Positions 11,999-31,848 of a stretch of 34,231 nucleotides of DNA are shown here, piece by piece; the first letter of the stretch is position 1; every line of letters begins with the position of its first letter. The DNA comes from Minisyncoccota bacterium (lineage in GTDB: Bacteria; Patescibacteriota; Minisyncoccia; Phycocordibacterales; UBA9973). The notes under the pieces were generated by a model that made no database searches, had not been told where the DNA came from, and worked only from the letters and a program-made list of their open reading frames with translations. Where the stretch lies: positions 1-34,231 of the forward strand of contig JAGOOZ010000003.1 in assembly GCA_017992215.1 (NCBI GenBank), written 5' to 3'. A program made the position numbers and the translations under genes.

Positions 11999-12032
11999 AG
12001 GTAGTCCACAGGCGTGGGAATACCTTGTTTTT
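11999..12032 (+). terminator. Orphan terminator-like hairpin
   Basis: AGGTAGTCCAC and GTGGGAATACCT pair imperfectly around AGGC, followed by TGTTTTT. Its T-tract touches the -35 box of the next promoter. It may end a short RNA starting near 11930-11940. Confidence 0.45.
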
Positions 12033-12060
12033 GGACAGCACTGTCTATATATAGTATAAT
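12031..12060 (+). promoter_or_regulatory. Promoter of the 952-aa gene operon
   Basis: TTGGAC (12031-12036), 18-bp spacer, TATAAT (12055-12060). The predicted start near 12067 gives a leader of about 27 nt. Confidence 0.7.
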
Positions 12061-12093: not shown

Positions 12094-14952
12094 ATGAAAC
12101 CAACACATATTGATGGCGCAAAAAGCCCCGAGGGTATAAATAAAGACCAAAAAAGCACCCTTGAGGCAGAGAAAATCCTTTCCCCAGAAGAACTTCTTGT
12201 CGAAGAAAATCGAGAGCGTTTTATCAAGGAAAGCCTTGCCTGCGACAAAGAGAAAAAGAGGCTCATCCTCATAGAAAAGACTCGTATTGCTACCTTCAAT
12301 ATCCTTGCTGGGGCAAAAAATATCTTTTCAAATAAAGACAATAAGATAGAAAAGGAAAAGCTCGACGAAGAACAGTTTCTCACAGAAGGATATAAGGAAT
12401 CTAAAAAGGCATACGACCACGCTCGCGTAGAACTCGGTAACACCCTCTTGAATACAAAAAGGGTAGAATTAAGAGATTCTGGCCTTGAGGGTGAAGAACT
12501 TGAAAAGGCACTCAAAGAATATAAAGCGACAGAAATTCTCAATAAAATCATCATTGAGGAGCGAGAAAAAATGATTCGTGCAAAAGCAGATAGTGACTCA
12601 CTCTCCAAACCTCACTGGAAAAAAGCAACTGACTGGTATCTTTCAAAACCTCGATGGGCACGCGTCGCTATGAGTACGGCATTTTTCCTACCAGCCGCCG
12701 CTGCTGGCACAGCGGGAGCATCTATTGTTGCCGGATACGGACTTGCCGGACTTGCAACAGTAAAGTTTGCTCAAAGTATGGCAACCGGTACACTTCTCGC
12801 ACAGGCAACAAAACTCATTGATGTAGCAAAACGCAAAAAAGATGCACTTTTTATTCAGAACCAAACAGAACAAAGAGCGAATCTTTCTTCTTTATATGCA
12901 AATAATTCAATTAGCCTTGAAGAATACGAACAGCGTGCATCTCTCATAGACAAAGAAGACAAGAAGCGTGAGCGGAATAGACTAATCCTCAAAGCTTCTG
13001 TGGGTATTTTACTTGGTGCAGGCGCGGGGGCTCTTACAACAGGTGCACTTACTGCTGGTGTATCTGAAACAAGCGTAGATGCAGTAGAACCACAAGCACC
13101 AAAAATGCCAGACGCAAGTGCACTTGTTGGAAAAGGAGAAGGGGTTACACACCCACTCTCTCGACAGATTGAAGCATTGCTTGAAAACAAAGAACAAGCA
13201 GAAAAACTTGGATTTACAGGTGGAGACGCACATGCATTTGCCATCAAAAAAGCAGCCGAACTCGCACACGAGTATGGATATATTCGCAACGATGGACTTG
13301 AGATTCGTCTCAACGAACAAGCAATCGGTCATACCGCATACGAAGTAACACTAAACCCAGATGGAACCCTCGCAATCCACGAATCATTTGATGGTGTGAC
13401 ACACGATGCAGGAACCCTTGATTCATACGAAACAATCAAAGAAACACAACACCCACCAAAACTAGTGCAGGCACAAGAACCAGTCCTCAAGGCTCCGGTC
13501 ACGCCAGACGATCTTGAACAAACACAAAATGGAGAGCAACACACAGAGGGAAGAGTAGGTGCACCACAAGAAAATACAACACTCGAACATACTCGTGATG
13601 TTTCAAGGAGTGAAATGGTTGGATCACTTAGTCGTGCAGAATTTGAACGTGAAGTAGAGCACTATCTTCGTCAGGTAAAAAATGCCTCATGGGAAACTAA
13701 AGCAAGTCACGATGCAGATATGTGGAAGTGGGAAAAATTTGGTGGGTTCGAACGAATACCACAGCCAGATGGTACATTCAAGCTCCACTTCATAGACCCA
13801 GAAAGTAATCCATACCTTGTTGCTGTACAAGGTAGTGGTGCGACCGCCGAAGATTTGATGATGGCAGACGCATCAAGTCCTCAGTTTGTTGTCGGAAAAG
13901 AATTAGTTGCACTTCGCGAAGAAGTTCTCCAGAAAACAGGAGTAGCGATTAACCCAAACCCTGGAGAATCTATGGATGCATATACAAAAAGAGCCTTCTC
14001 TGCACTCACAGGAGAAGTAGTACCCGGTCCTTCTTCTGTCACACCTCTTACAGAAACAGAACAACCTCGCGCATCACAAACAAATACAGAAACAACAGAA
14101 AATACAGCAGAAACAGCTGGGTCATTTAATCCATATAAATCTCGTGAATATATAGAAAACGGTAGAGATATAGAAAAAATGTCAGACGCACGAAGAATCT
14201 TTACCTCACAACCTCGAAATGTAGTGCTCAATACACCAGAGACAACAACACACGGAACAAGTCACTACAATTGGAATAAGGCAACTGAAAAAGTATTTGA
14301 AACTGAAAACGTATCGTTCTCATCATTTGATGAATTTGAAAAAGAACGAACACTCCAGAATCTTTTTGCACACAGTGAACAGCGGGAGGGAAATGCAATT
14401 GCGATGGATTATTTCCGAGAACAAAAAGATTGGAATACTATTCAAAAAATCCCCGCAGGAGCATTCATTGAAAACGATACTATTACACTCGCAAACGGAG
14501 AAGTCTATAAATTTGAAAACCGAGCACAATTACTCCGCCTTCGTGATGCATACATGAGTATTAATCCTCGAACAGCAAATCCATTCCCAAATGAAACAAT
14601 CGAACAATACGTTGGACGACTCACAAAGACAGTTCATCAGTCAACTGACGGAGTATTCTTTGCTCCCGGTAAAGATATAAAATACGAGCCCGTAACAACA
14701 AGAGGGCACGTTCCACAAGGAGCGCCTTCCCAGCGAGTACCTCTTCCACCATTTATGAATGAAGGGGGATCAATATCTCCAACACGTGGAATCTATAACA
14801 CTGGAGGGGTAGGACCAATACAGCAAAACACAGGAGGTGGTATGTGGAATGGTGGTGCATACCCTCCTGTCGCAACACAGGTTGCAAATATATTTATCAA
14901 TGAATTATTACGAAAAGTTGGGCTTGGGCGAGGAGGGACATATTGGAATTAA
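12094..14952 (+). CDS. Large membrane protein of unknown function
   Basis: 952 aa and the largest gene here. Residues 1-185 are Lys/Glu-rich and helical, likely coiled coil and cytoplasmic. Ala/Gly-rich hydrophobic segments follow at about 191-236 (room for two helices) and 297-323. The remainder, about 630 residues, has a conserved-looking module at 347-435 (starting G-K-G-E-G-V-T-H-P-L-S) and a Thr/Glu-rich linker near 650-690. Further mixed domains and a Gly/Pro/Asn-rich C-terminus end in G-R-G-G-T-Y-W-N. No enzyme motif is visible. It is followed 22 bp later by the 101-aa gene, then a terminator, so the two form an operon. It probably spans the membrane as an envelope scaffold, which is inference. 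Confidence 0.8.
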   Translation: MKPTHIDGAKSPEGINKDQKSTLEAEKILSPEELLVEENRERFIKESLACDKEKKRLILIEKTRIATFNILAGAKNIFSNKDNKIEKEKLDEEQFLTEGYKESKKAYDHARVELGNTLLNTKRVELRDSGLEGEELEKALKEYKATEILNKIIIEEREKMIRAKADSDSLSKPHWKKATDWYLSKPRWARVAMSTAFFLPAAAAGTAGASIVAGYGLAGLATVKFAQSMATGTLLAQATKLIDVAKRKKDALFIQNQTEQRANLSSLYANNSISLEEYEQRASLIDKEDKKRERNRLILKASVGILLGAGAGALTTGALTAGVSETSVDAVEPQAPKMPDASALVGKGEGVTHPLSRQIEALLENKEQAEKLGFTGGDAHAFAIKKAAELAHEYGYIRNDGLEIRLNEQAIGHTAYEVTLNPDGTLAIHESFDGVTHDAGTLDSYETIKETQHPPKLVQAQEPVLKAPVTPDDLEQTQNGEQHTEGRVGAPQENTTLEHTRDVSRSEMVGSLSRAEFEREVEHYLRQVKNASWETKASHDADMWKWEKFGGFERIPQPDGTFKLHFIDPESNPYLVAVQGSGATAEDLMMADASSPQFVVGKELVALREEVLQKTGVAINPNPGESMDAYTKRAFSALTGEVVPGPSSVTPLTETEQPRASQTNTETTENTAETAGSFNPYKSREYIENGRDIEKMSDARRIFTSQPRNVVLNTPETTTHGTSHYNWNKATEKVFETENVSFSSFDEFEKERTLQNLFAHSEQREGNAIAMDYFREQKDWNTIQKIPAGAFIENDTITLANGEVYKFENRAQLLRLRDAYMSINPRTANPFPNETIEQYVGRLTKTVHQSTDGVFFAPGKDIKYEPVTTRGHVPQGAPSQRVPLPPFMNEGGSISPTRGIYNTGGVGPIQQNTGGGMWNGGAYPPVATQVANIFINELLRKVGLGRGGTYWN

Positions 14953-14974
14953 TTACTCATAATCTTTTATATTT

Positions 14975-15280
14975 ATGTTACAAACACTTAACAACAACAT
15001 TATTAAAACACTTGGTATCGATTCACTACCAATTGAAAAACAAAAAGAAGCCATCGAGCGACTTGGTGCTATCGTATACCAAGAAACAATGCTTCGTGTT
15101 CTCGATATATTAAGTGAAGAAGATAAAGATGCATTCCAAGCACTTATTGAGAAAAATCCTGACCCAGAAACATTATTTTCTTTTCTTTCAGAAAAAGTTC
15201 CGACACTCGATACAATCGTAAACGAAGAAGCAGAGAAACTTCGAACAGAAGCAGGATCAATCATGGAACTCGTTGGATAA
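14975..15280 (+). CDS. Small acidic helical protein (DUF5663-like)
   Basis: 101 aa, acidic and almost fully helical, with no membrane segment. The order L-G-I-D-S-L-P-I-E-K-Q-K-E-A-I near the N-terminus, then E-T-M-L-R-V-L and L-S-E-E-D-K-D-A-F, resembles the DUF5663 family common in Patescibacteria; that name is from memory of the pattern. The function is unknown. It is the second gene of the operon with the 952-aa protein and ends at a strong terminator, so a chaperone or cytoplasmic partner of that protein is possible. The ATG lies 22 bp after the upstream stop, without a Shine-Dalgarno sequence. Confidence 0.8.
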   Translation: MLQTLNNNIIKTLGIDSLPIEKQKEAIERLGAIVYQETMLRVLDILSEEDKDAFQALIEKNPDPETLFSFLSEKVPTLDTIVNEEAEKLRTEAGSIMELVG

Positions 15281-15281
15281 A

Positions 15282-15316
15282 CAAAAACCCCCTCAATACG
15301 AGGGGGTTTGTTTTTT
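15282..15316 (+). terminator. Terminator after the 952/101-aa operon
   Basis: CAAAAACCCCCTC, loop AATAC, GAGGGGGTTTG, then TTTTTT. It is GC-rich, directly after the stop codon, and also lies just beyond the end of the leftward secreted-protein gene. Confidence 0.9.
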
Positions 15317-16242: not shown

Positions 16243-16271
16243 ATTATATACCTTTTTTGTGGTTTTGTCAA
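16243..16271 (-). promoter_or_regulatory. Consensus sigma-70-type promoter of the secreted-protein gene
   Basis: On the minus strand TTGACA (16266-16271), 17-bp spacer, TATAAT (16243-16248): both boxes are perfect. The leader to ATG 16218 is about 20 nt. Confidence 0.85.
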
Positions 16272-16311: not shown

Positions 16312-18243
16312 ATGCACTATTTGGAATCACTTAATGACAAGCAAAAAGAGGCTGTACTCTACACAGAAGGACCCCTTTTGATCGTAGCGGGGGCAGGGGC
16401 AGGAAAAACAAAAACAGTTACACACAGGATTATCCACCTTATCAACCTCGGTGTTTCCCCAGAATCTATTCTCGCTGTCACCTTTACAAATAAAGCCGCG
16501 AAAGAAATGCGGGAGCGAGTTATGTCACTGCTTGAATCATCATTTCATGGTGTTCCATCACACGAACAAGGACGTCAAGTACCACTTGTTTCAACATTTC
16601 ACTCACTTGGTGTTCGTATCATCAAAGAACATGCAACAAAACTTGGACTCACGAAACACTTCACGATTGCAGATGACCACGACACGATGGTGATCATCAA
16701 AGACGCAATGAAGAAACACGACATCGACCCCAAACAGCATGAGCCCCGAAAAATTCGAAGTATTATTTCAAAAGCAAAAGGAGATTTTATCACTGTTGAT
16801 GCATACAGAGCGGGTGTGACAAGTGGCCTCCAGTCAATCGTCGCCGTTATTTGGGGTGAATACGAGCGTGCACTCAAAAAAGAAAAAGCGCTTGATTTCG
16901 ATGATCTCCTCCTCGAGACAGTGCTCTTACTCAAAAAATATCCTGAAATAAAAAACGAGTACCGCACGACGTGGAACTATATTCATATTGATGAATACCA
17001 AGACACCAATGAAGTTCAATATGAACTTGTAAAATTACTTGTAGGACCAAAAGAAAATATTTGTGTTGTTGGTGATACCGACCAAAATATTTATTCATGG
17101 AGAGGAGCAAATATTAAAAATATGCTTCATTTTGAAAAAGACTATCCAGACGCAAAAATAATTCTTCTTGAGCAAAATTATCGTTCTACAAAAAATATTA
17201 TCGAAGCAGCCAATGCTGTCATAGAAAAAAACCAATATCGTGTTCCCAAAAATCTTTTCACAGAAAACACGACAGGGGAGCATATTAGCATCTACGAAGC
17301 GTACGATGAAGTACATGAAGCAGAATTTATCGCGACAACAATTCATGAACTCCTCAAACATACCCCCGCTGAAGAAATAGCAATACTCTATCGGGCAAAC
17401 TTTCAATCACGAGTACTTGAAGAATCTCTTCTTGGGCAAAATATTCCATACCAAGTGCTCGGTGTAAAATTCTTTGAACGTAAAGAAATCAAAGACGTAC
17501 TTTCCTATATCCGAGCAGCGTATAACAGAGAAAGTCTTTCTGATATTAAACGAATCATCAACACACCCACTCGTGGTATTGGAAAGGTAACACTTCTCAA
17601 ACTTTTTACAGACCAGATGAGTGAACTCCCCCTTGCGATGCAACAGAAAATAAACATGTTTTACAATACACTCGAAGAGATTCGTGTATTTGGAGAAACA
17701 CACACACCCTCAGAACTTATCAAGTTTGTTCTTGAAAAAAGTGGACTCGAAAAAGAACTCGCGCACGGAACAACAGACGAACAAGAACGTCTTGAAAATA
17801 TGCGTGAACTTGTAACACTTGCAACAAAATACGATACACTCGCCCCCGGAGAAGGACTTGAAAAACTTCTTGAAGATGCATCACTTGCAAGTGACCAAGA
17901 CACACTTCTCCATACAAAGGGAACTGGTGTGCGATTGATGACAGTACATGCATCAAAGGGACTTGAGTTTTCTCATGTCTTTATTGCAGGACTTGAACAA
18001 GATTTATTTCCACATGCAAATGGAAAAGCAACGAAAGAAGGACGCGAAGAAGAGCGACGACTTTTTTATGTAGCACTCACTCGAGCACGACACAAACTAT
18101 ATCTCTCGTACGCACAACTTCGTACTATTTATGGAATGAAACAAGTTACCACACCAAGTGAATTCATCTACGATATTCCTATGCATATCACCTACACAGA
18201 AGAAACACTTCCCCGTAACGGAGAGCGAATTATTTATATATAA
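16312..18243 (+). CDS. uvrD: UvrD/PcrA/Rep-family DNA helicase
   Basis: 643 aa, a superfamily 1A 3'-5' helicase for excision and recombination repair. Motif I is A-G-A-G-A-G-K-T at 26-33, motif II is D-E-Y-Q-D-T at 227-232, and motif III is G-D-T-D-Q-N-I-Y-S-W-R-G-A at 254-266. Motif IV (E-Q-N-Y-R-S-T), motif V (V-H-A-S-K-G-L-E-F) and motif VI (V-A-L-T-R-A-R) follow. It is shorter than UvrD/PcrA (about 720 aa): the C-terminal Tudor-like RNA-polymerase-binding tail is missing, and it ends soon after motif VI. Rep cannot be excluded. ksgA starts 7 bp downstream, so the two are likely cotranscribed. Confidence 0.95.
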   Translation: MHYLESLNDKQKEAVLYTEGPLLIVAGAGAGKTKTVTHRIIHLINLGVSPESILAVTFTNKAAKEMRERVMSLLESSFHGVPSHEQGRQVPLVSTFHSLGVRIIKEHATKLGLTKHFTIADDHDTMVIIKDAMKKHDIDPKQHEPRKIRSIISKAKGDFITVDAYRAGVTSGLQSIVAVIWGEYERALKKEKALDFDDLLLETVLLLKKYPEIKNEYRTTWNYIHIDEYQDTNEVQYELVKLLVGPKENICVVGDTDQNIYSWRGANIKNMLHFEKDYPDAKIILLEQNYRSTKNIIEAANAVIEKNQYRVPKNLFTENTTGEHISIYEAYDEVHEAEFIATTIHELLKHTPAEEIAILYRANFQSRVLEESLLGQNIPYQVLGVKFFERKEIKDVLSYIRAAYNRESLSDIKRIINTPTRGIGKVTLLKLFTDQMSELPLAMQQKINMFYNTLEEIRVFGETHTPSELIKFVLEKSGLEKELAHGTTDEQERLENMRELVTLATKYDTLAPGEGLEKLLEDASLASDQDTLLHTKGTGVRLMTVHASKGLEFSHVFIAGLEQDLFPHANGKATKEGREEERRLFYVALTRARHKLYLSYAQLRTIYGMKQVTTPSEFIYDIPMHITYTEETLPRNGERIIYI

Positions 18244-18250
18244 TAAAAAT

Positions 18251-19084
18251 ATGAAATCTCACCCACACTACGAGACGACAGAAACATCAGGTGTTTCATT
18301 TAAAAAGAAAAAATCTTTTGGGCAAAATTTTCTTAAATCAAAAGAAGCTCTTTTGATGATGTGCACAGCAGGGGAGATTGAAGCAAAAGATACCATTGTT
18401 GAAATTGGACCTGGTAAAGGTGTGCTTACAGAAAAACTACTCGAACGTGGAGAAAAAGTAATTGCAATCGAAAAAGACACTGATCTTATTCCATTTCTTT
18501 CTGAAAAATTTAATACTGAAATAAAAACAGGGAAACTCATCCTTGTACACGATGATATCCTATCATTTCAACCAGAGAAACATGCACTCACAGAAAATTC
18601 CTATAAAATCATCGCCAATATTCCGTACAATATTACAGGTGCCATTATTAAACGATTTCTTTCTGAAACAGAGAGACCTGAGAGAATGGTACTCCTTGTA
18701 CAGAAAGAAGTAGCCGAACGTATTGTCGCCCGTGACGGAAAAGAAAGCATCCTTTCGCTTTCGGTTAAAGCATATGGTACACCGACGTACAAAATGAAAG
18801 TAGGGAAGCGTTTTTTCTCACCAGCCCCAAAAGTTGATTCTGCTATCATTGCAATTACTGGTATAGGAATGCATCATTTCAAAACAAAAAAAGAAGAGGG
18901 TCACTTTTTTGATGTTATCAAGGCTGGTTTCTCACATAAACGCAAAGTTCTCCGGAAAAACCTTGAAGAAATAGCCCCTCTTGCTCGTATTGATAGTGTA
19001 TTCAAGGAACTCTCGCTTGATGAAAAGATACGAGCAGAAGATGTTCCGTTCACTACGTGGATACTTCTTGCGCGTGCAATCTAG
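18251..19084 (+). CDS. ksgA: 16S rRNA dimethyladenosine transferase
   Basis: 277 aa. The enzyme dimethylates two adjacent adenosines in the 3' terminal hairpin of 16S rRNA during 30S assembly. Visible motifs are K-S-F-G-Q-N-F-L at 21-28, SAM-binding E-I-G-P-G-K-G at 51-57, acidic E-K-D at 74-76, catalytic N-I-P-Y-N-I at 123-128 and F-F-S-P-A-P-K-V-D-S-A in the C-terminal part. The ATG at 18251 is chosen because upstream codons of the open frame lie inside uvrD and the family begins near here. It overlaps nothing, lacks a Shine-Dalgarno sequence and is presumably translated after uvrD. Confidence 0.95.
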   Translation: MKSHPHYETTETSGVSFKKKKSFGQNFLKSKEALLMMCTAGEIEAKDTIVEIGPGKGVLTEKLLERGEKVIAIEKDTDLIPFLSEKFNTEIKTGKLILVHDDILSFQPEKHALTENSYKIIANIPYNITGAIIKRFLSETERPERMVLLVQKEVAERIVARDGKESILSLSVKAYGTPTYKMKVGKRFFSPAPKVDSAIIAITGIGMHHFKTKKEEGHFFDVIKAGFSHKRKVLRKNLEEIAPLARIDSVFKELSLDEKIRAEDVPFTTWILLARAI

Positions 19085-19104
19085 GCTATTCTACACAAAA
19101 ATTG

Positions 19105-19110
19105 TATACT
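19105..19110 (+). promoter_or_regulatory. -10 box, leaderless start of the 146-aa exported protein
   Basis: TATACT ends 6 nt before ATG 19117. It is the first promoter of the secretion cluster. Confidence 0.6.
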
Positions 19111-19116
19111 TTATAC

Positions 19117-19554
19117 ATGAAACATATATCTACTTTTCTGTTTTTAGGTATGAGTGTTTTTCTTTTTGCATTTTCACCTGTCAATGTTTTTGCTGCATCG
19201 TACGGACTTACAAAATCATTTGGTGGACGAGTATATCTCGCACCAATCCCTGGTATTACATGCAATGGTGTTGGTACGCTTATGCTTTTAAATAGCAATG
19301 CGAACAGTGCCCTTCGAACACTCGGAAGTGCTGGTCAGTTAAATCAAAATAGCGCTCAAAAACTTGCTCAAAATGTCTACAGTGCAATCCCTACATACAC
19401 TACAGATGCACAAAAAAGCCCTCAACCAATGAAACAAATTCTCGGCAGACAAAACCTAACGCCAGATATGAATACGTGTTATATCCCAACACCAGCAGGT
19501 CCTGTCTATATACCCGTATTACGAACAACACCTAATTACAACGTCTCACGATAG
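19117..19554 (+). CDS. Exported 146-aa protein at the head of the secretion cluster
   Basis: A strong signal peptide (about 1-26, ending V-F-A-A) is followed by a soluble mature part of about 120 residues with two cysteines (I-T-C-N-G and N-T-C-Y-I-P), many N, Q, S and T, and Gly/Pro-rich turns. The cysteine pair suggests one disulfide after export. The ATG 19117 matches both the signal peptide and the 6-nt promoter spacing; an earlier in-frame start would lie inside ksgA. The next gene begins 2 bp after its stop, so it belongs to the cluster. I do not recognise the family. A small surface or pilus-associated subunit is possible but unproven. Confidence 0.8.
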   Translation: MKHISTFLFLGMSVFLFAFSPVNVFAASYGLTKSFGGRVYLAPIPGITCNGVGTLMLLNSNANSALRTLGSAGQLNQNSAQKLAQNVYSAIPTYTTDAQKSPQPMKQILGRQNLTPDMNTCYIPTPAGPVYIPVLRTTPNYNVSR

Positions 19555-19556
19555 TT

Positions 19557-20444
19557 ATGCATATCCCTCGAAAATATCTTCCTAGTGATCATTTTATTGC
19601 ACGAAGTATTATCATCGTGGTTATTGTTGTTGGTCTTTTTGGTGTATACCACCTTGGAAGATTTATTATTCGTTCAATCTGGGGGTCAGGTGATTCAAAA
19701 ATACTCATAAAAGAGCTTGTTGAACAAGATTCAAATAAAAATGGTATTGCAGATTGGGAGGAACGACTCTGGGGTCTTGATCCGACAAAACACGGAGATG
19801 CCAATAAAAAAGTTATTCTTGCAAAAAAGGAAGCCCTGGGCTCTCTAAACGCTGAAAACCAAGAACCTATCACCGAAAATGAAAAAATGGCTCGTGAATT
19901 TTTTGTACTTGTAACATCACTCACGCAAACAGGGAACCTTACCGATGAAGCTATTGCTGAAATAGCAGACTCTATCGGTAAACAAGCCGTCGCAGAACCA
20001 ATTCCTGATATTTACACAAAAGACTCAATAAAAACAAATACAACAACCCCTGCATCAATCCGTGCATACCATACTGCATTCACAAAACTTGCCGTAGCCT
20101 ACAGCACAAAAGATATTGGCAATGAATTGGGTTTTATCTCTCAAGCGATTGACCATAACGACCCTAAGGCCCTCTACGCTGCAATCACTGTAGGCCGAGA
20201 ATACAAGGCATTTGCAGAAGAACTCATAAAAATCCCAACCCCGACATCACTAGCAGTGACAACTGTCGCACTCGCAAATAATTATTACAAAACAGGCCTG
20301 TCTATTGATGAAATAGGAAAACTCATGGACGACCAACTCGCAGGCATGCGTGGTATTGTAAATTACAAAAAATACACTGATGGAATCATTGCAAATCTTG
20401 AAACAATGAAAACTTTTTTTGAAAGAAATGGTATACTAAAATAA
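19557..20444 (+). CDS. Anchored protein with dockerin/EF-hand-like calcium motif
   Basis: 295 aa. A short cytoplasmic tail is followed by one transmembrane helix (about 16-38), then extracellular. Directly after the helix lies a D-x-N-x-N-G-x-x-D-W-E-E loop at 58-69 followed by G-L-D-P-T-K, the pattern of thrombospondin-3/EF-hand-like calcium loops found on CPR surface proteins. The rest (about 100-295) is helical and without cysteine. It starts 2 bp after the preceding stop. The calcium motif next to the membrane suggests a Ca-stabilised stalk. Function unknown. Its last codons carry the -10 box for the next gene. Confidence 0.8.
   Translation: MHIPRKYLPSDHFIARSIIIVVIVVGLFGVYHLGRFIIRSIWGSGDSKILIKELVEQDSNKNGIADWEERLWGLDPTKHGDANKKVILAKKEALGSLNAENQEPITENEKMAREFFVLVTSLTQTGNLTDEAIAEIADSIGKQAVAEPIPDIYTKDSIKTNTTTPASIRAYHTAFTKLAVAYSTKDIGNELGFISQAIDHNDPKALYAAITVGREYKAFAEELIKIPTPTSLAVTTVALANNYYKTGLSIDEIGKLMDDQLAGMRGIVNYKKYTDGIIANLETMKTFFERNGILK
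20429..20437 (+). promoter_or_regulatory. Extended -10 box within the end of the 295-aa gene
   Basis: TGG-TATACT, 16 nt before ATG 20454. It can restart transcription inside the cluster. Confidence 0.5.
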
Positions 20445-20453
20445 CCATTCACT

Positions 20454-23075
20454 ATGAATTCGTTATCACCCACAAAAAAAATACTCAGAGCAACCCTAGT
20501 TTCATTTTCATTGTTTTCGTTCGTATATGATGCTTCTGCTGCAACAGAGGTTATAAACCCTCGTACAAACAACTGGACAACAAATACATCCTACAAACCA
20601 ACACTCGATACGATTACAAACTCGAGCATGTTTACCTCAGTTCCTGGTTGTACCAATATTACAAATAAAATCCAAAAATCAATTGGAAGTATTCTTACGA
20701 CAAGCCCTGATAAACTCATTGATATCTCAGAATCATCCAGAGATTCAATTGGTGATAATGTCACAACAACAGACAGGGATGTAGGGGACTCTCTCAAGAC
20801 AATACTTCGTGCGACAGAGGATCAGAAATTTCTAGCTGAGTGTATCGATGGTATTGGGTATCAACTCGCAAAAAAACAACTTTCAGACATTACACAAAAA
20901 ACACTCAACTGGACAGCAAAAGGATACGATGGTGACCCTCTCTTTGTTCGAAATCCAAGTGCATTTTATCAAGACATTTCAAACAAAGAAGTTCTTCAAT
21001 CAGCAAAACTCTATGGTGGACAAGGAAATAGCACTGATTACCCGTTTGGGAAAACATTTGCCCGATCAGCAGTTTCCGCAACAAAAGCAGAAAACAACGT
21101 AGAAGAATCACTTAAATCAGACCTCAGGCAATCACTCTCTGGCGGATCATCTCTTGATGAATACTCAAGAGACTTTTCTGTGGGTGGTTGGAATGGCTGG
21201 CTTGCGCTCACTCAAAAGCCACAAAATAATCCTCTTGGTTTTACAATGCTTGCAAGTCAATACACAGCAGAACAATCAGCCGAAAAAATCCAAAACCAAA
21301 AAGACGAACTCAATCAAAACAATGGCTTTCTCTCGCAGAAGCGATGTGTTGAATTATACCCAACTCCATCAAACCCAACAGGAGCTATCGGTGGGGCACA
21401 AGGTGCATACACAACAGGAAATGGTGCTTGTAAAACATACGAAACAATCACTCCAGGAAGTGTGATAGCAGAACAAGTTGTGACTGCGCTCACATCTCCA
21501 ATTCGACAACTCGAACTTGCTGACGGAGTAAATGAATCTCTTGGTGGTGTATTTAGTCGTCTTTTGAACCAACTTGGACTTCAAGGACTCGTAGGACTTT
21601 CATCATTTGGATCTGGTGGTGCAGGGTGGACAGATGAAGACACCATACTTTCTGTACAAAAAGGAGAGGGGTGGAGTGATAGCGATGATACATTTGACCT
21701 CACAAAAAACCTTGGCAATAGTTATATCAGAACAGAAGCAGAAAATCTTGGACCATGGGATGCAAAAAACAACAAGCCAGAACTTGTTGCTGGTGTAGGA
21801 ACTAAAAATACATATTATATTGTTTCAGTAGCAGGGAATACAGAACTCAGTGAACCCGCTGAGTGTTTCCCTGTGCAATATGCAGGTGGTGGTACCTCAA
21901 ACTGTTGGGGTCGTGGTGATGCTGTGTTTTTTGATGGTGAATCATGGATATCTGCAAAATATATCAATGGGGTAAATGCAAAATCAGGATTCAAAAACGC
22001 AAAAACAGGCAAGAAAATACAGGTAATCGACAAAAAGGGCGTTATTCAGATTCAACACGATTACATTAAAGCAGTAAAAGCATCACAAAAAGAACTTCCT
22101 AAAATCATGCCAGCTATTGGTGCTCTTGATTATTGTATTCCTGGTCCAAATCCAAGCTGGTATGAAAGTGCCGAACTCGCAGGAGAAGCACTCGCTGGAT
22201 ATATTGGTGGTATTTCACTTGATCCAAACACACTTCAAATTGTTGCCCCTGCACCAGGTCAATACAAAACACTATACTTCGGAACAAAACCATGGAAACA
22301 ATTAAGCCCCACAAAGTTTGAAAACCTATTTGAGACCTATTTTAGTATTGATCCCAACCAATTCGCCTCAGCATTCATGACTTCATTTAAAAGCAATGCG
22401 TTTGGTGGTGGTAGTAGCGGCTTTACGGGTGACATCGTTGGTGATATTGTTGGAAGTATTTTTGGTGGAAATAGTGGACCAAGTGCATCAGATATTGCAT
22501 TTCAACAAGCATTTGCTGAAGCACAAGGAATCCTTGAAGAACAAAAGGCAATTACCATCGATGGTATGATTAGTATTCTTGGTCAATACAAAGAAGCGAT
22601 TGATGCTGTCTATGGACAGGGAAGTCCTATGACCACAGAACTTCTTATCGACCCCGTAACTGAAAACGCAACAAAAAACCCAGCATACCTTCCAATGTCA
22701 CTTTCTGGAATAGCAATTACTAAAAATATTAGAATATACGACCTCAACATAGAACAAGCAGACAAAGACTACCGAGACCTTATCGATGAAGGTGTTTCAA
22801 ATATATACAAACTCAATATCATCAAAGAGCGTGTCGATAAAATCATCAAAGCCGCTCAAGCACGCAGAGCACGACAAGTAGGAGCACCTATTCCAATCGA
22901 ATGTCTCGCAAATGAAACGATAACGTATCTCTCAGACGGAACAAAGAGAACGACACTCGATGGATTCAATACAAACACAAGCGATGACACATGGAATGGA
23001 ATATTTGATGGCGTAACTGGTGGTGGGGTAACAGGAACACCAAACACAGGAGTTATTAATGGCGTAGCACAATAA
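20454..23075 (+). CDS. Large exported protein of the secretion cluster, unknown
   Basis: 873 aa. A signal peptide (about 1-30, ending A-S-A-A) precedes the mature protein. It is rich in N, T, S and Q, with scattered cysteines (for example A-E-C-F-P-V...N-C-W-G and D-Y-C-I-P-G-P-N-P-S-W) that could form disulfides. A Gly/Ser-rich flexible region lies near 645-690 (F-G-G-G-S-S-G-F), and a helical region follows at about 690-800. No enzyme motif was recognised. It lies between two anchored accessory proteins and upstream of the VirB6-like gene. It is therefore a candidate structural or adhesin component of the apparatus, which is inference from neighbourhood. Confidence 0.8.
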   Translation: MNSLSPTKKILRATLVSFSLFSFVYDASAATEVINPRTNNWTTNTSYKPTLDTITNSSMFTSVPGCTNITNKIQKSIGSILTTSPDKLIDISESSRDSIGDNVTTTDRDVGDSLKTILRATEDQKFLAECIDGIGYQLAKKQLSDITQKTLNWTAKGYDGDPLFVRNPSAFYQDISNKEVLQSAKLYGGQGNSTDYPFGKTFARSAVSATKAENNVEESLKSDLRQSLSGGSSLDEYSRDFSVGGWNGWLALTQKPQNNPLGFTMLASQYTAEQSAEKIQNQKDELNQNNGFLSQKRCVELYPTPSNPTGAIGGAQGAYTTGNGACKTYETITPGSVIAEQVVTALTSPIRQLELADGVNESLGGVFSRLLNQLGLQGLVGLSSFGSGGAGWTDEDTILSVQKGEGWSDSDDTFDLTKNLGNSYIRTEAENLGPWDAKNNKPELVAGVGTKNTYYIVSVAGNTELSEPAECFPVQYAGGGTSNCWGRGDAVFFDGESWISAKYINGVNAKSGFKNAKTGKKIQVIDKKGVIQIQHDYIKAVKASQKELPKIMPAIGALDYCIPGPNPSWYESAELAGEALAGYIGGISLDPNTLQIVAPAPGQYKTLYFGTKPWKQLSPTKFENLFETYFSIDPNQFASAFMTSFKSNAFGGGSSGFTGDIVGDIVGSIFGGNSGPSASDIAFQQAFAEAQGILEEQKAITIDGMISILGQYKEAIDAVYGQGSPMTTELLIDPVTENATKNPAYLPMSLSGIAITKNIRIYDLNIEQADKDYRDLIDEGVSNIYKLNIIKERVDKIIKAAQARRARQVGAPIPIECLANETITYLSDGTKRTTLDGFNTNTSDDTWNGIFDGVTGGGVTGTPNTGVINGVAQ

Positions 23076-23081
23076 CATACA

Positions 23082-24587
23082 ATGGATTCAATCAACCACA
23101 ACCCAAAACGAAGTAAGGCACTCATCATCACCGTGATTGCTGTTTGTGTATTACTTGTTGGTGCGTATTTTCTTTATACAAACAGAGCTCAAATTTTTGG
23201 AACAAAAGGTGATTCTGTTGAAGACAAATCTTTCTTTCCACTCCTTGGATCTTCTCGGAAGAAACCTGTTGATGTGATAAACCAACAAGAAACACCAACA
23301 CAAGAAGAAGAGATACAAACAGAAGAAGGGGGTATTCCTCTTTTTAAACCGATTCCAAACCCTGTCGGTAAACAGCCAATCGTATCACTCAGTGCAAATC
23401 CACAAATACTCACCGATGGTGGTGGTAAATTCAAACTGACGTGGAGAGGGGACAATGTTACTTCGTGTATTCCAAGTTGGACAAATAAGAAAACAACAGA
23501 AACGAGTGGTACTTCAAATGAACTCTCTCTTTCAAAATCAAAAGTATTTAGTATCGCATGTACTAACGGAGTAACAACAGTAAGTGCTCAAGCGGGAGTA
23601 ACTGTTATCGGAGGAGCAGCACTCGATGTATCAATCCGTGCACGACCAAGTGTGCTTGATGAGAGTGGCCCTGTTGTACTCTCGTGGGTCAGTAATTCCA
23701 ATGCACAATCCTGTACACTCGGATGGAATAATAAAAAAGTAGCAACAACAGGTGAAGTCACCGTATCCGTATCTTCACCAAAATCTTTTTCGGTAAGCTG
23801 TACAAATGGCACGCTTTCAGAAACAGCAGAGGTTGATGTGATTATTACTGGGTTCCGTTCAACACTCGCACAATGTAGAGATGGTATTGATAACGATGGA
23901 GATACGACCATTGATACACTCGATCCGAGTTGTCATACTGATTTTGATAGCACCGACGAGAGTACCTACAATCCAAATGAAAATAACGAAGCCCGAGTTA
24001 AAACTGTTACAACTGAAGATAATAAATGTAAGGTCGTCGATGACAACCCTCTTGTATTTACCGCAACAGAACAAAAAGAACTTGATACACTTCTCCGTCA
24101 ATTTTATCGAGTTGCACCACTTCTGAAGACAGAAGATGATGTTCTCGCTGAAACTCGTGCACGAATTGGATATATTGAACTCGTAAGAGAAGTAGAAAGT
24201 CTCACCAATAGATGCGTTGCCGAACAATACCCCAATACCGACGGGGGTAAGGCTCGTCTTTCAGCGGACGCAACAAAAGAATACACTGGCCCACGTCAAG
24301 TACGAACAAATCCATACTATCCACCAATTGGTACAACAGTATACGACGCGGGAACATATGTCAGCGAGTTTGATTACGTCACCAAGAGTCAGCAAAAAAT
24401 AATACAGAAACAACAGCAGGTTGTCGCATATTGGAATGCAAAAATAGCGACAGCAAAGAAACAGAGCCAGATACGACTCTATACACACGCACGAGACCAG
24501 CAAGTAAAAATGCTCGAGGCAGTCAAAGATTCAAAATCAATGACAAAACACTTCATGTTGCTCGAGAAAATGCTCGGTATTTGGTAA
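23082..24587 (+). CDS. Anchored protein with two Ig-like repeats and a calcium motif
   Basis: 501 aa. A short N-terminus, one transmembrane helix (13-33) and an acidic linker (60-90) are followed by two tandem Ig-like repeats (about 99-177 and 180-256). Each repeat has one cysteine pair (C129/C160 and C211/C240) and the same S-C-x-x-x-W-x-N-K-K core. A C-R-D-G-I-D-N-D-G-D and D-P-S-C-H-T-D-F-D calcium-type segment follows at 265-293. The C-terminal 190 residues are helical, ending in a Gln/Lys-rich coiled coil. It starts 6 bp after the preceding gene. Similar modular proteins decorate CPR surfaces. It probably projects from the membrane beside the secretion apparatus; the ligand is unknown. 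Confidence 0.85.
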   Translation: MDSINHNPKRSKALIITVIAVCVLLVGAYFLYTNRAQIFGTKGDSVEDKSFFPLLGSSRKKPVDVINQQETPTQEEEIQTEEGGIPLFKPIPNPVGKQPIVSLSANPQILTDGGGKFKLTWRGDNVTSCIPSWTNKKTTETSGTSNELSLSKSKVFSIACTNGVTTVSAQAGVTVIGGAALDVSIRARPSVLDESGPVVLSWVSNSNAQSCTLGWNNKKVATTGEVTVSVSSPKSFSVSCTNGTLSETAEVDVIITGFRSTLAQCRDGIDNDGDTTIDTLDPSCHTDFDSTDESTYNPNENNEARVKTVTTEDNKCKVVDDNPLVFTATEQKELDTLLRQFYRVAPLLKTEDDVLAETRARIGYIELVREVESLTNRCVAEQYPNTDGGKARLSADATKEYTGPRQVRTNPYYPPIGTTVYDAGTYVSEFDYVTKSQQKIIQKQQQVVAYWNAKIATAKKQSQIRLYTHARDQQVKMLEAVKDSKSMTKHFMLLEKMLGIW

Positions 24588-24634
24588 TACACAGAAAAAT
24601 GACAATTATAGTATAGGATTTTATCAAAAAAAAT

Positions 24635-24643
24635 TGGTATACT
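24635..24643 (+). promoter_or_regulatory. Extended -10 promoter, leaderless GTG start of the VirB6-like gene
   Basis: TGG-TATACT, ending 6 nt before GTG 24650. Confidence 0.65.
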
Positions 24644-24649
24644 ATATAT

Positions 24650-26872
24650 GTGAAAAACGTATCTTCATTTATTCTCTCGCTCATACTCATCGCGACTGTT
24701 TTCGCGCCTGTTGCGTTTAATCTAGGGACTGCACAATTTAGCACTCGTACTGTATACGCCCTCGACGGAAACGGGGGAGGTGATGCCAACCTTGATAGAT
24801 TCAACACCGCCCTTTCAGAAGAAAGACAAAATCAAGAACCGACCCCTCCAACACAACTCCCATCATGTGGCTTTGGTTCTATCTCTGGTTGTATCGCTCA
24901 GGTTATCTACTATCTTTTATTTGTTCCAACATCATACCTTTTTGCTCTTACTGGTATGTTTTTTGATTTTACTTTTGCCTACTCTATCAATGACGCTTCG
25001 TATCGAGTACCTTTTATTACCCAAGGATGGGCACTTCTCCGAGATGTCGTTAATATGTTTTTCATCTTTGTTCTTCTCTTTGTTGCTTTTCAGACAATTG
25101 TCGGGACGCATGGCGTAAAAACAAAAGAAACGATTAAAAACGTCATTGTGATTGGTATTCTTATCAACTTTAGCCTTTTTGCAACACAAATTATCGTTGA
25201 TACCTCAAATATTCTTGCTCGGGTATTTTACAATGATGATGCAATTACCATTACCAAAGGTGGGGCAAACGGTGTCACCGAAGCAACAATAGAAAAAGGA
25301 GCGTCAGGAGAAATACCACTTTCAGCAGCTCTCGTAAATGGTATCAACCCTCAAAACCTTATCCTTAACGCAGATAAAGTTTCTGATATTAAAACAGCGG
25401 GGAATGCAAATACCGCAACAGGTGGGGGTGCTGAATCTCTTAGTGCGGGAACATTTATACTCGTAACGATTCTTGCGATTATTATCAACATTGTTGGTAT
25501 GATCACATTTCTCTCTGTCGGACTTATTTTTATCTCTCGTGTTATTGGACTTTGGTTCGTGATGATTTTTGCTCCACTTGCTTTCTTTAGTTACACAGTA
25601 CCCTCAATGAGAAATAAACCAATTATCGGGTGGACACAGTGGTGGGAAGAACTCTTTAACCTTTCTGTCCTTGCTCCTATTTTCATCTTCTTCCTCTATC
25701 TTATTTTGCGATTTGTAAAAGAAGGGTTTAACTTTATCGACATCGAGAACCTCACTGGTATCGAATGGGTAATGGCTATCATGATTCCTTTTATATTTAT
25801 CATGATATTACTTCTCACCGCAAAAAAACTCGCAACAGAATACTCTGGCACAATAGGAAAAGCTGTTACGGGTGGTATCTCAGCACTTGGTGGTGTCGCC
25901 ATGGTGGCAGCGACCGGTGGTATTGCAGCAGCGGGCCGTGGTGTCGGTGGTGTTATGGCTCGTGCGTCACGAGGGGAGACACTCTCTCAGCGTTTTGCTG
26001 ACCCAGCAAAACGAAGCACAATGAGTATTCCACAAAAAGTCTTTGGTGGAATCGGAGCAGGACTTGGAGCAAATAAGATTTTTGGCAAAACAACAACCAC
26101 AGGTGGTAAGACAACAGTGACAAGCGGTGTTGGTAAAATTCTCAATGAAAAACAAAAGGGTGTTGAGAAAACAGACCACGCTCGTCACACCATCGATGAC
26201 GCAAAGAAAAAAGCTGGATTTGGAGATGTTTCATGGTCACGACTCTCTGCTCCTCAGATGGACAAAGTTCTTGCTGAATTTAAGAAAGGCAAAAAAGAAG
26301 ACCTTACAAAAGACATAAGGGAAGGCAGGGTGGCTGGTGTTGAAAGTGAGGTTGATTACAAAAAGAAACACTACCTAGCTGAAGAATCAAAATACAGGAC
26401 AGCATCAGGTGTAACAGGATCACTCTCAAAAAGAGACGAAGCTATTATCGAAAAGAATCTTTCAAACAATTATTCAAAAGATGTTATTTCTCCAAACATT
26501 GATATCCAAGTTCAAGCAAAATTCGATGCAGAGAAACAAGAGGCAGAAAAAACCGTTTCTCCAATCGACAGAGCAATCTCTCAAGCCAACACGGGAAGTT
26601 GGGATCCTCGAAATCTCTCATCTCTCACACAAGACAAAAGAGAAAGTTTTGCAACACGAGCACTTACTGGATTTACTTCGTTCTCAAGTGGACAAATTAG
26701 GGGTGCAATTAAAAACATTGGCTTTGACATGGGTACTGCACAAAAAGATTTTATTAAAGAATTAACAACATCCCTTGCTGAAGCACTCAAGCAAATACAG
26801 ATTGATGTAAAAGTAAAAGGAGGAGAAAAGAAAAAAGGAGGCGATGATCATGGAGGTGGAGCACATCACTAA
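24650..26872 (+). CDS. VirB6/TrbL-like polytopic membrane protein
   Basis: 740 aa, GTG start. A signal peptide (about 1-37, V-Y-A) is followed by at least seven hydrophobic segments within about 80-410 (for example 80-110, 131-152, 163-190, 268-310, 335-360, 380-400). A long basic, Gly-rich soluble C-terminal region ends in G-G-D-D-H-G-G-G-A-H-H. This layout matches VirB6/TrbL-type inner-membrane channel proteins of type IV secretion systems, and the PrgI and VirB4 genes lie just downstream. The alternative ATG at 24648 is in another frame and closes at once, so GTG is chosen. Family membership is by architecture, not by a motif. Confidence 0.8.
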   Translation: MKNVSSFILSLILIATVFAPVAFNLGTAQFSTRTVYALDGNGGGDANLDRFNTALSEERQNQEPTPPTQLPSCGFGSISGCIAQVIYYLLFVPTSYLFALTGMFFDFTFAYSINDASYRVPFITQGWALLRDVVNMFFIFVLLFVAFQTIVGTHGVKTKETIKNVIVIGILINFSLFATQIIVDTSNILARVFYNDDAITITKGGANGVTEATIEKGASGEIPLSAALVNGINPQNLILNADKVSDIKTAGNANTATGGGAESLSAGTFILVTILAIIINIVGMITFLSVGLIFISRVIGLWFVMIFAPLAFFSYTVPSMRNKPIIGWTQWWEELFNLSVLAPIFIFFLYLILRFVKEGFNFIDIENLTGIEWVMAIMIPFIFIMILLLTAKKLATEYSGTIGKAVTGGISALGGVAMVAATGGIAAAGRGVGGVMARASRGETLSQRFADPAKRSTMSIPQKVFGGIGAGLGANKIFGKTTTTGGKTTVTSGVGKILNEKQKGVEKTDHARHTIDDAKKKAGFGDVSWSRLSAPQMDKVLAEFKKGKKEDLTKDIREGRVAGVESEVDYKKKHYLAEESKYRTASGVTGSLSKRDEAIIEKNLSNNYSKDVISPNIDIQVQAKFDAEKQEAEKTVSPIDRAISQANTGSWDPRNLSSLTQDKRESFATRALTGFTSFSSGQIRGAIKNIGFDMGTAQKDFIKELTTSLAEALKQIQIDVKVKGGEKKKGGDDHGGGAHH

Positions 26873-26880
26873 TACACATT

Positions 26881-27876
26881 ATGGACAAAACACAATTACA
26901 ACAACTCATACAAGATAGATACAAAGCACTTTCGCCAAATGCGCAGCAGGTATTTAGTTCTATGGAGTGGGCAACTACACTCACTGAGATTGCACAAAAA
27001 TACGCTCTCAACGAGGCACAAATAGTACACCTTGGAACAGAAACAACCCTTGTGCTTCTTGGTATTATTTCTATTACTGAATATAGAACAACACTTGAAA
27101 AAGAACTCGCTCGACCAAAAGATATTTCAGAAAAAATACTTGCTGAGATAGAAAGTCGAATCACAAATCCTGTAGCACAAGACCTCCTTACTGCACACAA
27201 TGAATACACCGCAGGACCTCGTGAGACTACAAATACTCCCACCGAGCAACTCTCTCTCAGTGAAGCAACAACACAAGCACTCAAAGAATCAGACTACGGG
27301 GCAAAACTTGCTCGCATCGGACAAGAACAAGTAGTATCTCTTGCTGATATGAAAAAAATAGAAGATGCAACTATACTCTACCTCAAGGGAACTATGCCCT
27401 CACGCATTTTTGAACAAACGATAGCCGATATTCTCCCCCCAGAAAAAGCCCGTCTTGTTCTTCGTAGTATTAACGATATGATTCTCGCTCCGATGAGAAC
27501 ATACATACAGACACACACAACTCCGTCTATCCCCGTACCACCATATAAAACACAATCAAGTGTTCTTGCTACTGCTGGAATTGAAATGGTTGAATCAATA
27601 GATAAAGATACATCACAGGGAGGATTCGACAACGACAAGGGATCATTCTCAGAATCAGGCATTGCTGTTGTTGAAAAAAAAGAACAAGAAGATACTGAGC
27701 ATCTCTATGCAAGTAACGCAGTCCGAAAAAATGTCCTCGACGGAATAGAAAACCCACAAAAAACACGGTCTCTTGCTCAAGAGAAAATGGAGGGCATCAT
27801 CACTACAACAAAAAAAGACAGCGATTACTCAATACCAAAAATGACACCCGATGTGTATCGAGAACCAATCGGTTAA
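26881..27876 (+). CDS. Cytoplasmic protein with two tandem helical domains
   Basis: 331 aa, no signal peptide or membrane helix. Two helical regions align roughly with each other, about 20-100 and 130-210. Both carry a hydrophobic helix ending in L-x-x-I, a polar turn, then T-E/A-T-T/I-L-x-L-x-G, and a helix ending in P-x-x-A. They look like an internal duplication. The last 110 residues are acidic, Lys/Ser/Gln-rich and probably unfolded, ending in a Pro-rich P-D-V-Y-R-E-P-I-G. It starts 8 bp after the VirB6-like gene, so it is cotranscribed. Not recognised. It may dock the cytoplasmic face of the channel, which is inference. Confidence 0.75.
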   Translation: MDKTQLQQLIQDRYKALSPNAQQVFSSMEWATTLTEIAQKYALNEAQIVHLGTETTLVLLGIISITEYRTTLEKELARPKDISEKILAEIESRITNPVAQDLLTAHNEYTAGPRETTNTPTEQLSLSEATTQALKESDYGAKLARIGQEQVVSLADMKKIEDATILYLKGTMPSRIFEQTIADILPPEKARLVLRSINDMILAPMRTYIQTHTTPSIPVPPYKTQSSVLATAGIEMVESIDKDTSQGGFDNDKGSFSESGIAVVEKKEQEDTEHLYASNAVRKNVLDGIENPQKTRSLAQEKMEGIITTTKKDSDYSIPKMTPDVYREPIG

Positions 27877-27883
27877 TCTTTTG

Positions 27884-27892
27884 TGATACAAT
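27884..27892 (+). promoter_or_regulatory. Extended -10 promoter, leaderless start of the PrgI gene
   Basis: TGA-TACAAT, ending 6 nt before ATG 27899. The same hexamer and spacing are used at the DksA-like gene. Confidence 0.65.
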
Positions 27893-27898
27893 ATACTC

Positions 27899-28318
27899 AT
27901 GCAATTCAAGGTTCCACAATTTATCGATATCGAAGATAAACTGTTTGGCCCACTTACGTTTCGCCAATTTGCATACCTTGCAGGTGGGGGAGGTATGGTT
28001 TTTGTTATCTACAAACTACTTCCACTTTGGATAGGTATTTTTCTTATGCTCCCTATTGTTATTCTTGTACTAGCACTCGCATTCTACAAGATAAACAATC
28101 AGCCTTTTATCTATTATCTTCAAGCAAGTATTACGTATGCAATCACAAACAAACTCTATGTATGGAAACAGCGACTCGTAAAACCAAGCCTCAAAAAAGA
28201 AGAGCCCGAAAAAGAACAGACAATCAATCTCCCGCGAATGTCTGGAAATAAACTCTCAGACCTTGCATGGAGTCTCGACGTAGAAACAAAAGACACCTCA
28301 AACACAAATATTCAATAA
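27899..28318 (+). CDS. prgI: PrgI family protein (VirB3-like)
   Basis: 139 aa. The PrgI opening is clear: M-x-F-x-V-P-Q-F-I-D-I-E-D-K-L-F-G-P-L-T. Then R-Q-F leads into two adjacent transmembrane helices (about 24-42 and 44-63). A basic linker, A-S-I-T-Y-A-I-T-N-K-L-Y-V-W-K-Q-R, and a Lys/Glu tail follow. PrgI occurs next to VirB4-type ATPases in Gram-positive conjugation systems and takes the place of VirB3. Here the VirB4 N-terminal-like and VirB4 genes follow. It would sit in the cytoplasmic membrane as part of the VirB3/VirB4 base of the machine. Confidence 0.92.
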   Translation: MQFKVPQFIDIEDKLFGPLTFRQFAYLAGGGGMVFVIYKLLPLWIGIFLMLPIVILVLALAFYKINNQPFIYYLQASITYAITNKLYVWKQRLVKPSLKKEEPEKEQTINLPRMSGNKLSDLAWSLDVETKDTSNTNIQ

Positions 28319-28325
28319 TTAATTG

Positions 28326-28334
28326 TGATATACT
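28326..28334 (+). promoter_or_regulatory. Extended -10 promoter before the split VirB4 genes
   Basis: TGA-TATACT, ending 9 nt before ATG 28344. Confidence 0.55.
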
Positions 28335-28343
28335 AAAATTATT

Positions 28344-30814: not shown

Positions 30815-30842
30815 CCGTATTGTTTAGCACACCGAGTTATCA

Positions 30843-30848
30843 TATAAT
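30843..30848 (+). promoter_or_regulatory. -10 box, leaderless GTG start of the Ig-like exported protein
   Basis: TATAAT ends 6 nt before GTG 30855. The intervening AGAGGA could also act as a weak Shine-Dalgarno only if a longer leader were made. Confidence 0.6.
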
Positions 30849-30854
30849 AGAGGA

Positions 30855-31844: not shown

Positions 31845-31848
31845 ATAT

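What the first reader, a model, noticed from the sequence alone, without database searches (positions are those of the whole stretch)
12094..15280. Unrecognised two-gene operon: 952-aa membrane protein plus 101-aa helical partner
The operon has its own near-consensus promoter and strong terminator and takes up 3.2 kb of a reduced genome. The large protein combines a coiled-coil front, Ala/Gly-rich membrane segments, at least one repeat-like module (347-435) and a Gly-rich tail. No known system matches it. A membrane complex specific to this lineage is likely.
Basis: inference. Interest (0 to 1): 0.55.

Follow-up and report, generated by a model that had tools for sequence, protein, structure and literature searches.

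The report
Undescribed partner pair near secretion genes
A tiny, probably host-dependent bacterium carries a conserved pair of genes, a large membrane protein and a small helical partner, that repeatedly sits beside the genes of its type IV secretion machine and may be an undescribed accessory of it.

Summary
The two-gene operon is real: a 952-aa gene (BIG) and, 22 nt later, a 101-aa gene (SMALL), with an 11/12 promoter match and a strong terminator. The genome is Patescibacteria. BIG passes no Pfam or NCBIfam cut-off, and 55 relatives scanned in Pfam gave one doubtful hit; SMALL is DUF5663-like, just under its cut-off. The pairing is conserved: of 285 genomes of the class, 50 have BIG's membrane domain and 45 of these have SMALL within 2.1 kb on the same strand. 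In this family the pair precedes UvrD, RsmA and a type IV secretion (T4SS) cluster; in other families 27 of 44 readable SMALL loci have a T4SS coupling-ATPase homologue within four genes. BIG's module 343-432 is also the C-terminal module of proteins beside T4SS-cluster genes (17 of 17). Best reading: an undescribed T4SS-associated membrane protein, coiled coil inside, large variable part outside, with a cytosolic acidic helical adaptor, perhaps linking host contact to substrate loading. The association is shown; topology and mechanism are inferred. Rivals: an effector with its chaperone, or a general envelope scaffold.

The parts
12032..12060 (+). promoter-like site TGGACA-17-TATAAT
   Evidence: 11 of 12 consensus positions
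12094..14952 (+). BIG, 952-aa membrane protein
   Evidence: relatives
12388..13029 (+). BIG residues 99-312: NT domain (coiled coil, Ala/Gly-rich hydrophobic stretch about 187-232, charged loop, start of the hydrophobic segment 297-315); the family-defining part
   Evidence: profile A9 finds it in 50 of 285 class genomes
13120..13389 (+). BIG residues 343-432: module A, shared with proteins encoded inside the T4SS cluster of relatives
14419..14640 (+). BIG residues 776-849: T39 module, at the C-terminus in most relatives that have it
14701..14949 (+). Gly-rich tail of BIG (about residues 870-952)
   Evidence: sequence; alignment
14975..15280 (+). SMALL, 101-aa acidic all-helical protein, DUF5663-like (21.4 bits, cut-off 23.7)
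15285..15309 (.). intrinsic terminator, both directions
16312..18243 (+). UvrD-like helicase; conserved downstream of the pair in the family
18158..19084 (+). RsmA/KsgA
19057..33249 (+). T4SS gene cluster: c8 19057, c2 19557 (one hydrophobic segment), c1 20454 (secreted-looking), c6 23082 (one hydrophobic segment), c4 24650 (10 hydrophobic segments; VirB6-like by topology only), c3 26881, PrgI 27899, TrsD-like 28344, VirB4/TraG ATPase 28985, 30855, VanY with T4SS_pilin 31849

Best explanation
BIG and SMALL are an undescribed accessory pair of the Patescibacterial type IV secretion system. BIG is anchored in the cytoplasmic membrane by an Ala/Gly-rich hydrophobic hairpin and a further segment; its N-terminal coiled coil and basic loops face the cytosol, and about 630 residues, including module A and the T39 module, face outside. 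SMALL is a cytosolic acidic helical adaptor for BIG's inner part. The most likely job is to join an outer, variable, host- or envelope-contacting part to the secretion ATPases inside, so that the channel is engaged or loaded at the contact site. Shown: the conserved pairing, the genomic link to T4SS and coupling-protein genes, the shared module. Inferred: topology, SMALL's binding site, the contact and loading role.
For: Conserved pairing: 45 of 50 NT-positive class genomes (of 285 searched) have SMALL on the same strand within 2.1 kb; in the family loci 43 of 49 SMALL genes touch a same-strand gene of 400 aa or more, 35 of these 43 with a BIG module. Position: 40 of 49 SMALL genes in family loci have UvrD downstream, with RsmA and T4SS genes beyond it in those whose sequence runs on far enough; five of the other nine stop at a contig end. 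In other families 27 of 44 readable SMALL loci have a coupling-protein homologue within four genes and 3 more have a T4SS-cluster gene in the locus; three such coupling homologues all pass Pfam TrwB_AAD_bind and two pass T4SS-DNA_transf. The same query has no hit in the family loci. Shared module: 17 of 17 proteins with module A at their C-terminus lie within three genes of c1 or c4 of the T4SS cluster; 14 of the 17 begin, judged by eye, with a signal-peptide-like segment, which places module A outside the cell. Basic flanks fit N-in, C-out (sequence). Outside the class, 6 of 11 NT-positive genomes have Pfam DUF5663 within 2 kb on the same strand; those genomes were not used to build the NT profile.
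Against: UvrD and RsmA separate the pair from the T4SS cluster in this family, so the order could be inherited without function. 17 of 44 loci in other families show no coupling protein within four genes, 14 of them no T4SS-cluster gene either. Some relatives keep c1/c2/c4 genes but lack the pair (L145, L152). DUF5663 relatives also lie beside translation genes (IF-2 confirmed for one locus), so SMALL's wider family is not T4SS-specific. BIG's model is unusable (mean pLDDT 39.4). If the hydrophobic stretch 187-232 spans once and not twice, the C-terminal part would be inside. The pairing count is partly circular. No experiment.
Confidence: 0.5

Rival explanations
1. BIG is a secreted T4SS effector and SMALL its cytosolic chaperone or adaptor; the C-terminal T39 module is the secretion signal read by the coupling protein.
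For: A small acidic helical gene directly beside a large variable gene; a coupling-ATPase homologue nearby in 27 of 44 loci; T39 ends within 25 aa of the C-terminus in 34 of 39 matches.
Against: T39 gives one match per genome in 52 of 56 positive genomes, so it is not a signal shared by several effectors; in the window it is internal, 103 aa from the end; no toxin or enzyme domain in the 56 of 59 BIG proteins scanned in Pfam, apart from one doubtful DUF763 hit; the widely conserved part is the membrane domain.
Confidence: 0.18
2. A general envelope or cytoskeletal scaffold pair of Patescibacteria, unrelated in function to secretion; its gene position is inherited.
For: Housekeeping genes lie between it and the T4SS; 17 of 44 loci elsewhere lack a coupling gene nearby; long coiled-coil segments.
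Against: Two different secretion contexts (VirB4 cluster in one family, coupling protein in others) and a module shared with proteins of the T4SS cluster; the NT profile finds the protein in only 50 of 285 class genomes, though a diverged copy could be missed.
Confidence: 0.22
3. A toxin-antitoxin or mobile-element pair that came to lie next to the T4SS.
For: Small acidic partner and variable large protein.
Against: Stable gene neighbourhood over many genomes, one copy of BIG in the own genome, no PHROG match, no relative of SMALL in the one viral-contig scan.
Confidence: 0.04

Closest known systems
DUF5663 (Pfam PF18908)
   Same: SMALL aligns over residues 22-92; a SMALL gene next to a coupling protein in another family passes the cut-off (L181, 37.4 bits)
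   Different: SMALL itself is below the cut-off (21.4 against 23.7); DUF5663 also occurs beside a translation gene
Patescibacterial MPF-FATA-type T4SS (PMC12102498)
   Same: The downstream cluster has PrgI, a TrsD-like protein, VirB4 and a T4SS_pilin match near RsmA/KsgA, all of which that paper reports for Patescibacteria
   Different: The parts of that paper that I read do not describe BIG or SMALL; they report no PrgB-type adhesin and few VirB8 homologues
PrgB-type adhesins of Gram-positive conjugation systems (recalled)
   Same: Possible analogue in role: a large surface protein encoded with a T4SS
   Different: No sequence match found; BIG has a coiled-coil and internal hydrophobic segments, and a small partner
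T4SS effector with chaperone, such as VirE2 with VirE1, or the Xanthomonadales T4SS effectors (recalled)
   Same: Large variable protein, small acidic neighbour, coupling protein nearby in other families
   Different: Candidate signal (T39) once per genome as a rule, no toxin domain found, conserved membrane domain

Membership tests
DUF5663 (PF18908) | score over Pfam's gathering cut-off of 23.7 bits | tested here: not met
   21.4 bits, E 3.8e-4; relative in L181 37.4 bits. So it is called DUF5663-like, not filed as a member
Any Pfam or NCBIfam family (BIG) | match over a curated cut-off | tested here: not met
   Pfam and NCBIfam for the window protein; Pfam for 56 of 59 NT-bearing proteins gave DUF763 in one (E 3.9e-4)
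T4SS structural component | sequence match to a known T4SS component profile | tested here: not met
   none for BIG or SMALL in Pfam or NCBIfam; CONJScan profiles were not at hand
T4SS structural component | encoded with VirB4 or the coupling protein in several lineages | tested here: met
   this shows association only
T4SS effector | secretion signal shared by several proteins of a genome | tested here: not met
   T39 once in 52 of 56 positive genomes; other kinds of signal not tested
T4SS effector | translocation into a target cell | not testable with these tools
   needs an experiment
PrgB-like adhesin | sequence or fold match | tested here: inconclusive
   no Pfam match; BIG model has mean pLDDT 39.4 and was not searched
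Known fold for SMALL | match to a solved structure | tested here: inconclusive
   Foldseek best E 1.6; VIA-align best Z 4.2, rmsd 4.3 over 86 residues, which is common for helical proteins

The most novel reading that the evidence does not exclude
BIG-SMALL is the missing contact-sensing and loading part of the episymbiont T4SS: one protein that binds the host or its envelope outside and, through SMALL, docks the coupling ATPase inside, with the outer part diversifying to follow the host.
Probability: 0.17. Interest if true: 0.78.

Novelty: new variant of a known kind. Interest (0 to 1): 0.5.

Why it matters
Patescibacteria are thought to live on other cells, and PMC12102498 states that T4SS genes were essential for host-dependent growth in the single experimental study of a T4SS in this phylum. 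How their T4SS meets the host and picks cargo is unknown; that paper found no PrgB-type adhesin and few VirB8 homologues. A conserved, unannotated pair tied to both the T4SS cluster and the coupling ATPase gives concrete proteins to test for that role.

Tried and rejected
Internal repeat in BIG: residues 610-637 resemble the T39 module at only 0.5 bits; not accepted. Homology of BIG to the window's own c6 (23082-24587): none by BLASTP, although proteins in the same place in other genera carry module A. My first guess that DUF5663 in other classes lies beside pilus ATPases was wrong: Pfam shows IF-2 at L187. My script label 'VirB6' was a mistake for c1 (20454-23075), a secreted-looking protein; the gene with 10 hydrophobic segments is c4. 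NT and T39 profiles are unrelated. Solved structures by sequence gave nothing I trust for BIG, SMALL, module A or T39. The viral-contig scan with SMALL found no relative. The genome-contig scan with whole BIG found none and with SMALL found five. BIG's model was too poor to search. VIA-align listed no chain with Z of 5 or more for SMALL. The paper search for DUF5663 found none in the held library. Of PMC12102498 I read the abstract, text parts 2 to 4 and passages; its supplementary tables could not be looked up, so the genes may be listed there.

Rows dropped: of 59 NT-bearing proteins three of the longest (L109, L118, L119) were left out of the Pfam scan to keep within its residue limit. Of 94 SMALL-positive genomes outside the family, I fetched 50, the higher-scoring ones (one, G366, was passed over); in 6 of the 50 loci my ORF picker lost SMALL and they were dropped (L218, L228, L233, L235, L236, L246), leaving 44. 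In one search a second, weaker NT match in G111 was left out. In one search the picker lost SMALL in several loci and in the window itself; these are not among the 49.

Full report
What is there. The window is contig C8 of a 533-kb genome in 50 contigs. Five loci with record titles that carry a SMALL relative are recorded as Candidatus Nomurabacteria (two), Candidatus Paceibacterota, Patescibacteria group bacterium and uncultured bacterium; that the window belongs to the class Paceibacteria is inferred from these. BIG (12094-14952) and SMALL (14975-15280) have relatives in many genomes and lie 22 nt apart. An 11/12 promoter match lies upstream and a strong terminator downstream. BIG has one match in its own genome.

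Anatomy of BIG. Iterated profile searches over the fetched loci mark three recurrent parts: a coiled-coil and membrane domain (NT, 99-312), module A (343-432) and the T39 module (776-849), with linkers and a Gly-rich tail. NT holds an Ala/Gly-rich hydrophobic stretch (about 187-232), basic flanks, a charged loop and the start of a second hydrophobic segment (297-315). If the first stretch is a hairpin, all basic flanks lie inside and the C-terminal 630 residues outside. This is inference from the positive-inside rule; a single span there would reverse it. The AlphaFold2 model, from six sequences, has mean pLDDT 39.4; only about 31-50, 101-160 and 251-290 are helices of moderate confidence. The 59 NT-bearing proteins found run from 510 to 1589 aa, some cut by contig ends.

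SMALL. It is acidic (net charge -10; -6 to -13 over 16 sequences) and is modelled as five helices at mean pLDDT 83.7. Pfam DUF5663 matches at 21.4 bits, under its cut-off of 23.7. No solved structure is a convincing match.

The pair is conserved. In the window's family 64 of 147 genomes have SMALL and 56 of 147 have T39; 35 have both against 24 expected (Fisher p 2.6e-4, which ignores relatedness). So each is also often found without the other. Of 49 SMALL genes in the family loci, 43 touch a same-strand gene of 400 aa or more (35 upstream, 8 downstream), and 35 of the 43 neighbours carry an NT, A or T39 match; the upstream gap is mostly between 2 and 52 nt. In 285 genomes drawn evenly from the class, 100 have SMALL and 50 have NT; 46 of the 50 have both, 45 on the same strand within 2.1 kb. 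That count is partly circular, since many NT sequences in the profile were collected beside SMALL. A freer check: outside the class, 11 genomes of the phylum sample of 286 have an NT match, several of them weak, and 6 of these 11 (G461, G477, G513, G537, G644, G662) have Pfam DUF5663 within 2 kb on the same strand. Pfam DUF5663 itself has matches in 68 of those 286 genomes and in none of 14 control genomes.

The link to type IV secretion, in this family. Downstream of the pair lie UvrD, RsmA and then genes with PrgI, TrsD-like, TraG/VirB4 and T4SS_pilin matches; the pilin match is just below its cut-off (25.7 against 26.6). Of 49 SMALL genes in the family loci, 40 have UvrD downstream, mostly as the next gene, in some after other genes. 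Of the other nine, five stop at a contig end (L105, L108, L115, L125, L128), three have other genes (L116, L141, L142), and L140 ends after two other genes. Twenty relatives without a SMALL hit were looked at: 17 had RsmA, 15 of the 17 fetched loci could be read, and in 10 of these 15 a same-strand gene of 600 aa or more lies just before UvrD or one or two short genes away, four of the ten with a module A or T39 match there; L145 and L152 have nothing between the M23 gene and UvrD.

In other families. I fetched 50 of the 94 SMALL-positive genomes that lie outside the family, the higher-scoring ones; 44 loci were readable. Of these 44, 26 have NT within two genes of SMALL, 27 have a coupling-protein homologue within four genes, and 3 others have a T4SS-cluster gene in the locus. 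The homologues were called with one query (L181) by phmmer. Three tested in Pfam all pass TrwB_AAD_bind and two pass T4SS-DNA_transf; a fourth (L224) passes TrwB_AAD_bind. A short gene of about 120 to 180 aa often lies between, and it matches part of the coupling protein itself in L208 and L224, as if fused. The same query has no hit in the family loci. With about five matches per genome in the window's genus, some of them pieces, and an assumed 750 genes, chance would give about 6% of loci; 27 of 44 is far beyond that, also at 12% (binomial). The null is rough, because gene orders are shared by descent.

The shared module. Module A occurs in 37 proteins of the loci searched. In 17 it is C-terminal, 26 to 29 aa from the end, and all 17 lie within three genes of c1 or c4 of the T4SS cluster. 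By eye 14 of the 17 start with a signal-peptide-like segment, two are cut by a contig end and one is unclear. Of five tested in Pfam, L067 has six Ig-type (He_PIG) stretches over the cut-off, L052 passes a purple-acid-phosphatase N-terminal model, and the rest have only sub-threshold fn3, CARDB or similar matches. So module A is probably an outer module used both by BIG and by a secreted protein of the cluster. It is mainly a feature of this family: 14 of 285 class genomes match, nine outside the family, seven of those nine weakly.

Mechanism. Shown: pairing, position, shared module. Inferred: N-in, C-out topology; SMALL bound to BIG's inner coiled coil; an outer part that contacts host or envelope; coupling to the ATPases. 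The effector reading is weakened because T39, the best candidate for a signal, gives one match in 52 of 56 genomes and no toxin domain was seen in 56 of the 59 BIG proteins. The unrelated-scaffold reading stays open: UvrD and RsmA intervene, 17 of 44 loci elsewhere lack a coupling gene nearby, and DUF5663 relatives in other classes lie in what looks like a translation gene cluster (IF-2 confirmed at L187 only).

Literature. PMC12102498 (abstract, text parts 2 to 4 and passages) describes the Patescibacterial T4SS and KsgA near virB4, and in those parts does not describe this pair. PMC10936435 (passages) reports highly expressed signal-peptide proteins with Ig-like folds and T4SS pilins in Paceibacteria. 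A search for DUF5663 found no paper in the held library. Other papers were seen as search listings only.

Noticed in passing
window 31849-33249 (+): One 466-aa protein has both a T4SS_pilin match (25.7 bits, just under the cut-off of 26.6) and a VanY D-Ala-D-Ala carboxypeptidase domain (43.3 bits): a possible pilin-peptidase fusion in the T4SS cluster.
   Followed up: no
window 28344-30814 (+): VirB4 appears split into a gene like its N-terminal part (TrsD-like) and a TraG/VirB4 ATPase gene.
   Followed up: partly
window 15328-16218 (-): A 296-aa gene with a signal-peptide-like start and a perfect 12/12 promoter match at 16271 lies on the other strand between SMALL and UvrD; in most family loci SMALL is followed directly by UvrD.
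   Followed up: no
L187-L194: Outside the class, DUF5663 relatives lie in a recurring gene order with genes of about 350 and 590 aa; at L187 the latter is IF-2 by Pfam.
   Followed up: partly
G000 against its genus: The long (about 910 aa) coupling-protein homologue seen in 20 of 24 genomes of the genus is not found in the window's own genome, which has only a shorter one on C15; the assembly is incomplete.
   Followed up: no
G063:C24:4916-5491: Two T39 matches in tandem in one 1314-aa open frame.
   Followed up: no
L208:9240-11975 (-), L224:8800-11523 (-): The short gene usually found between SMALL and the coupling protein appears fused to the coupling protein.
   Followed up: partly
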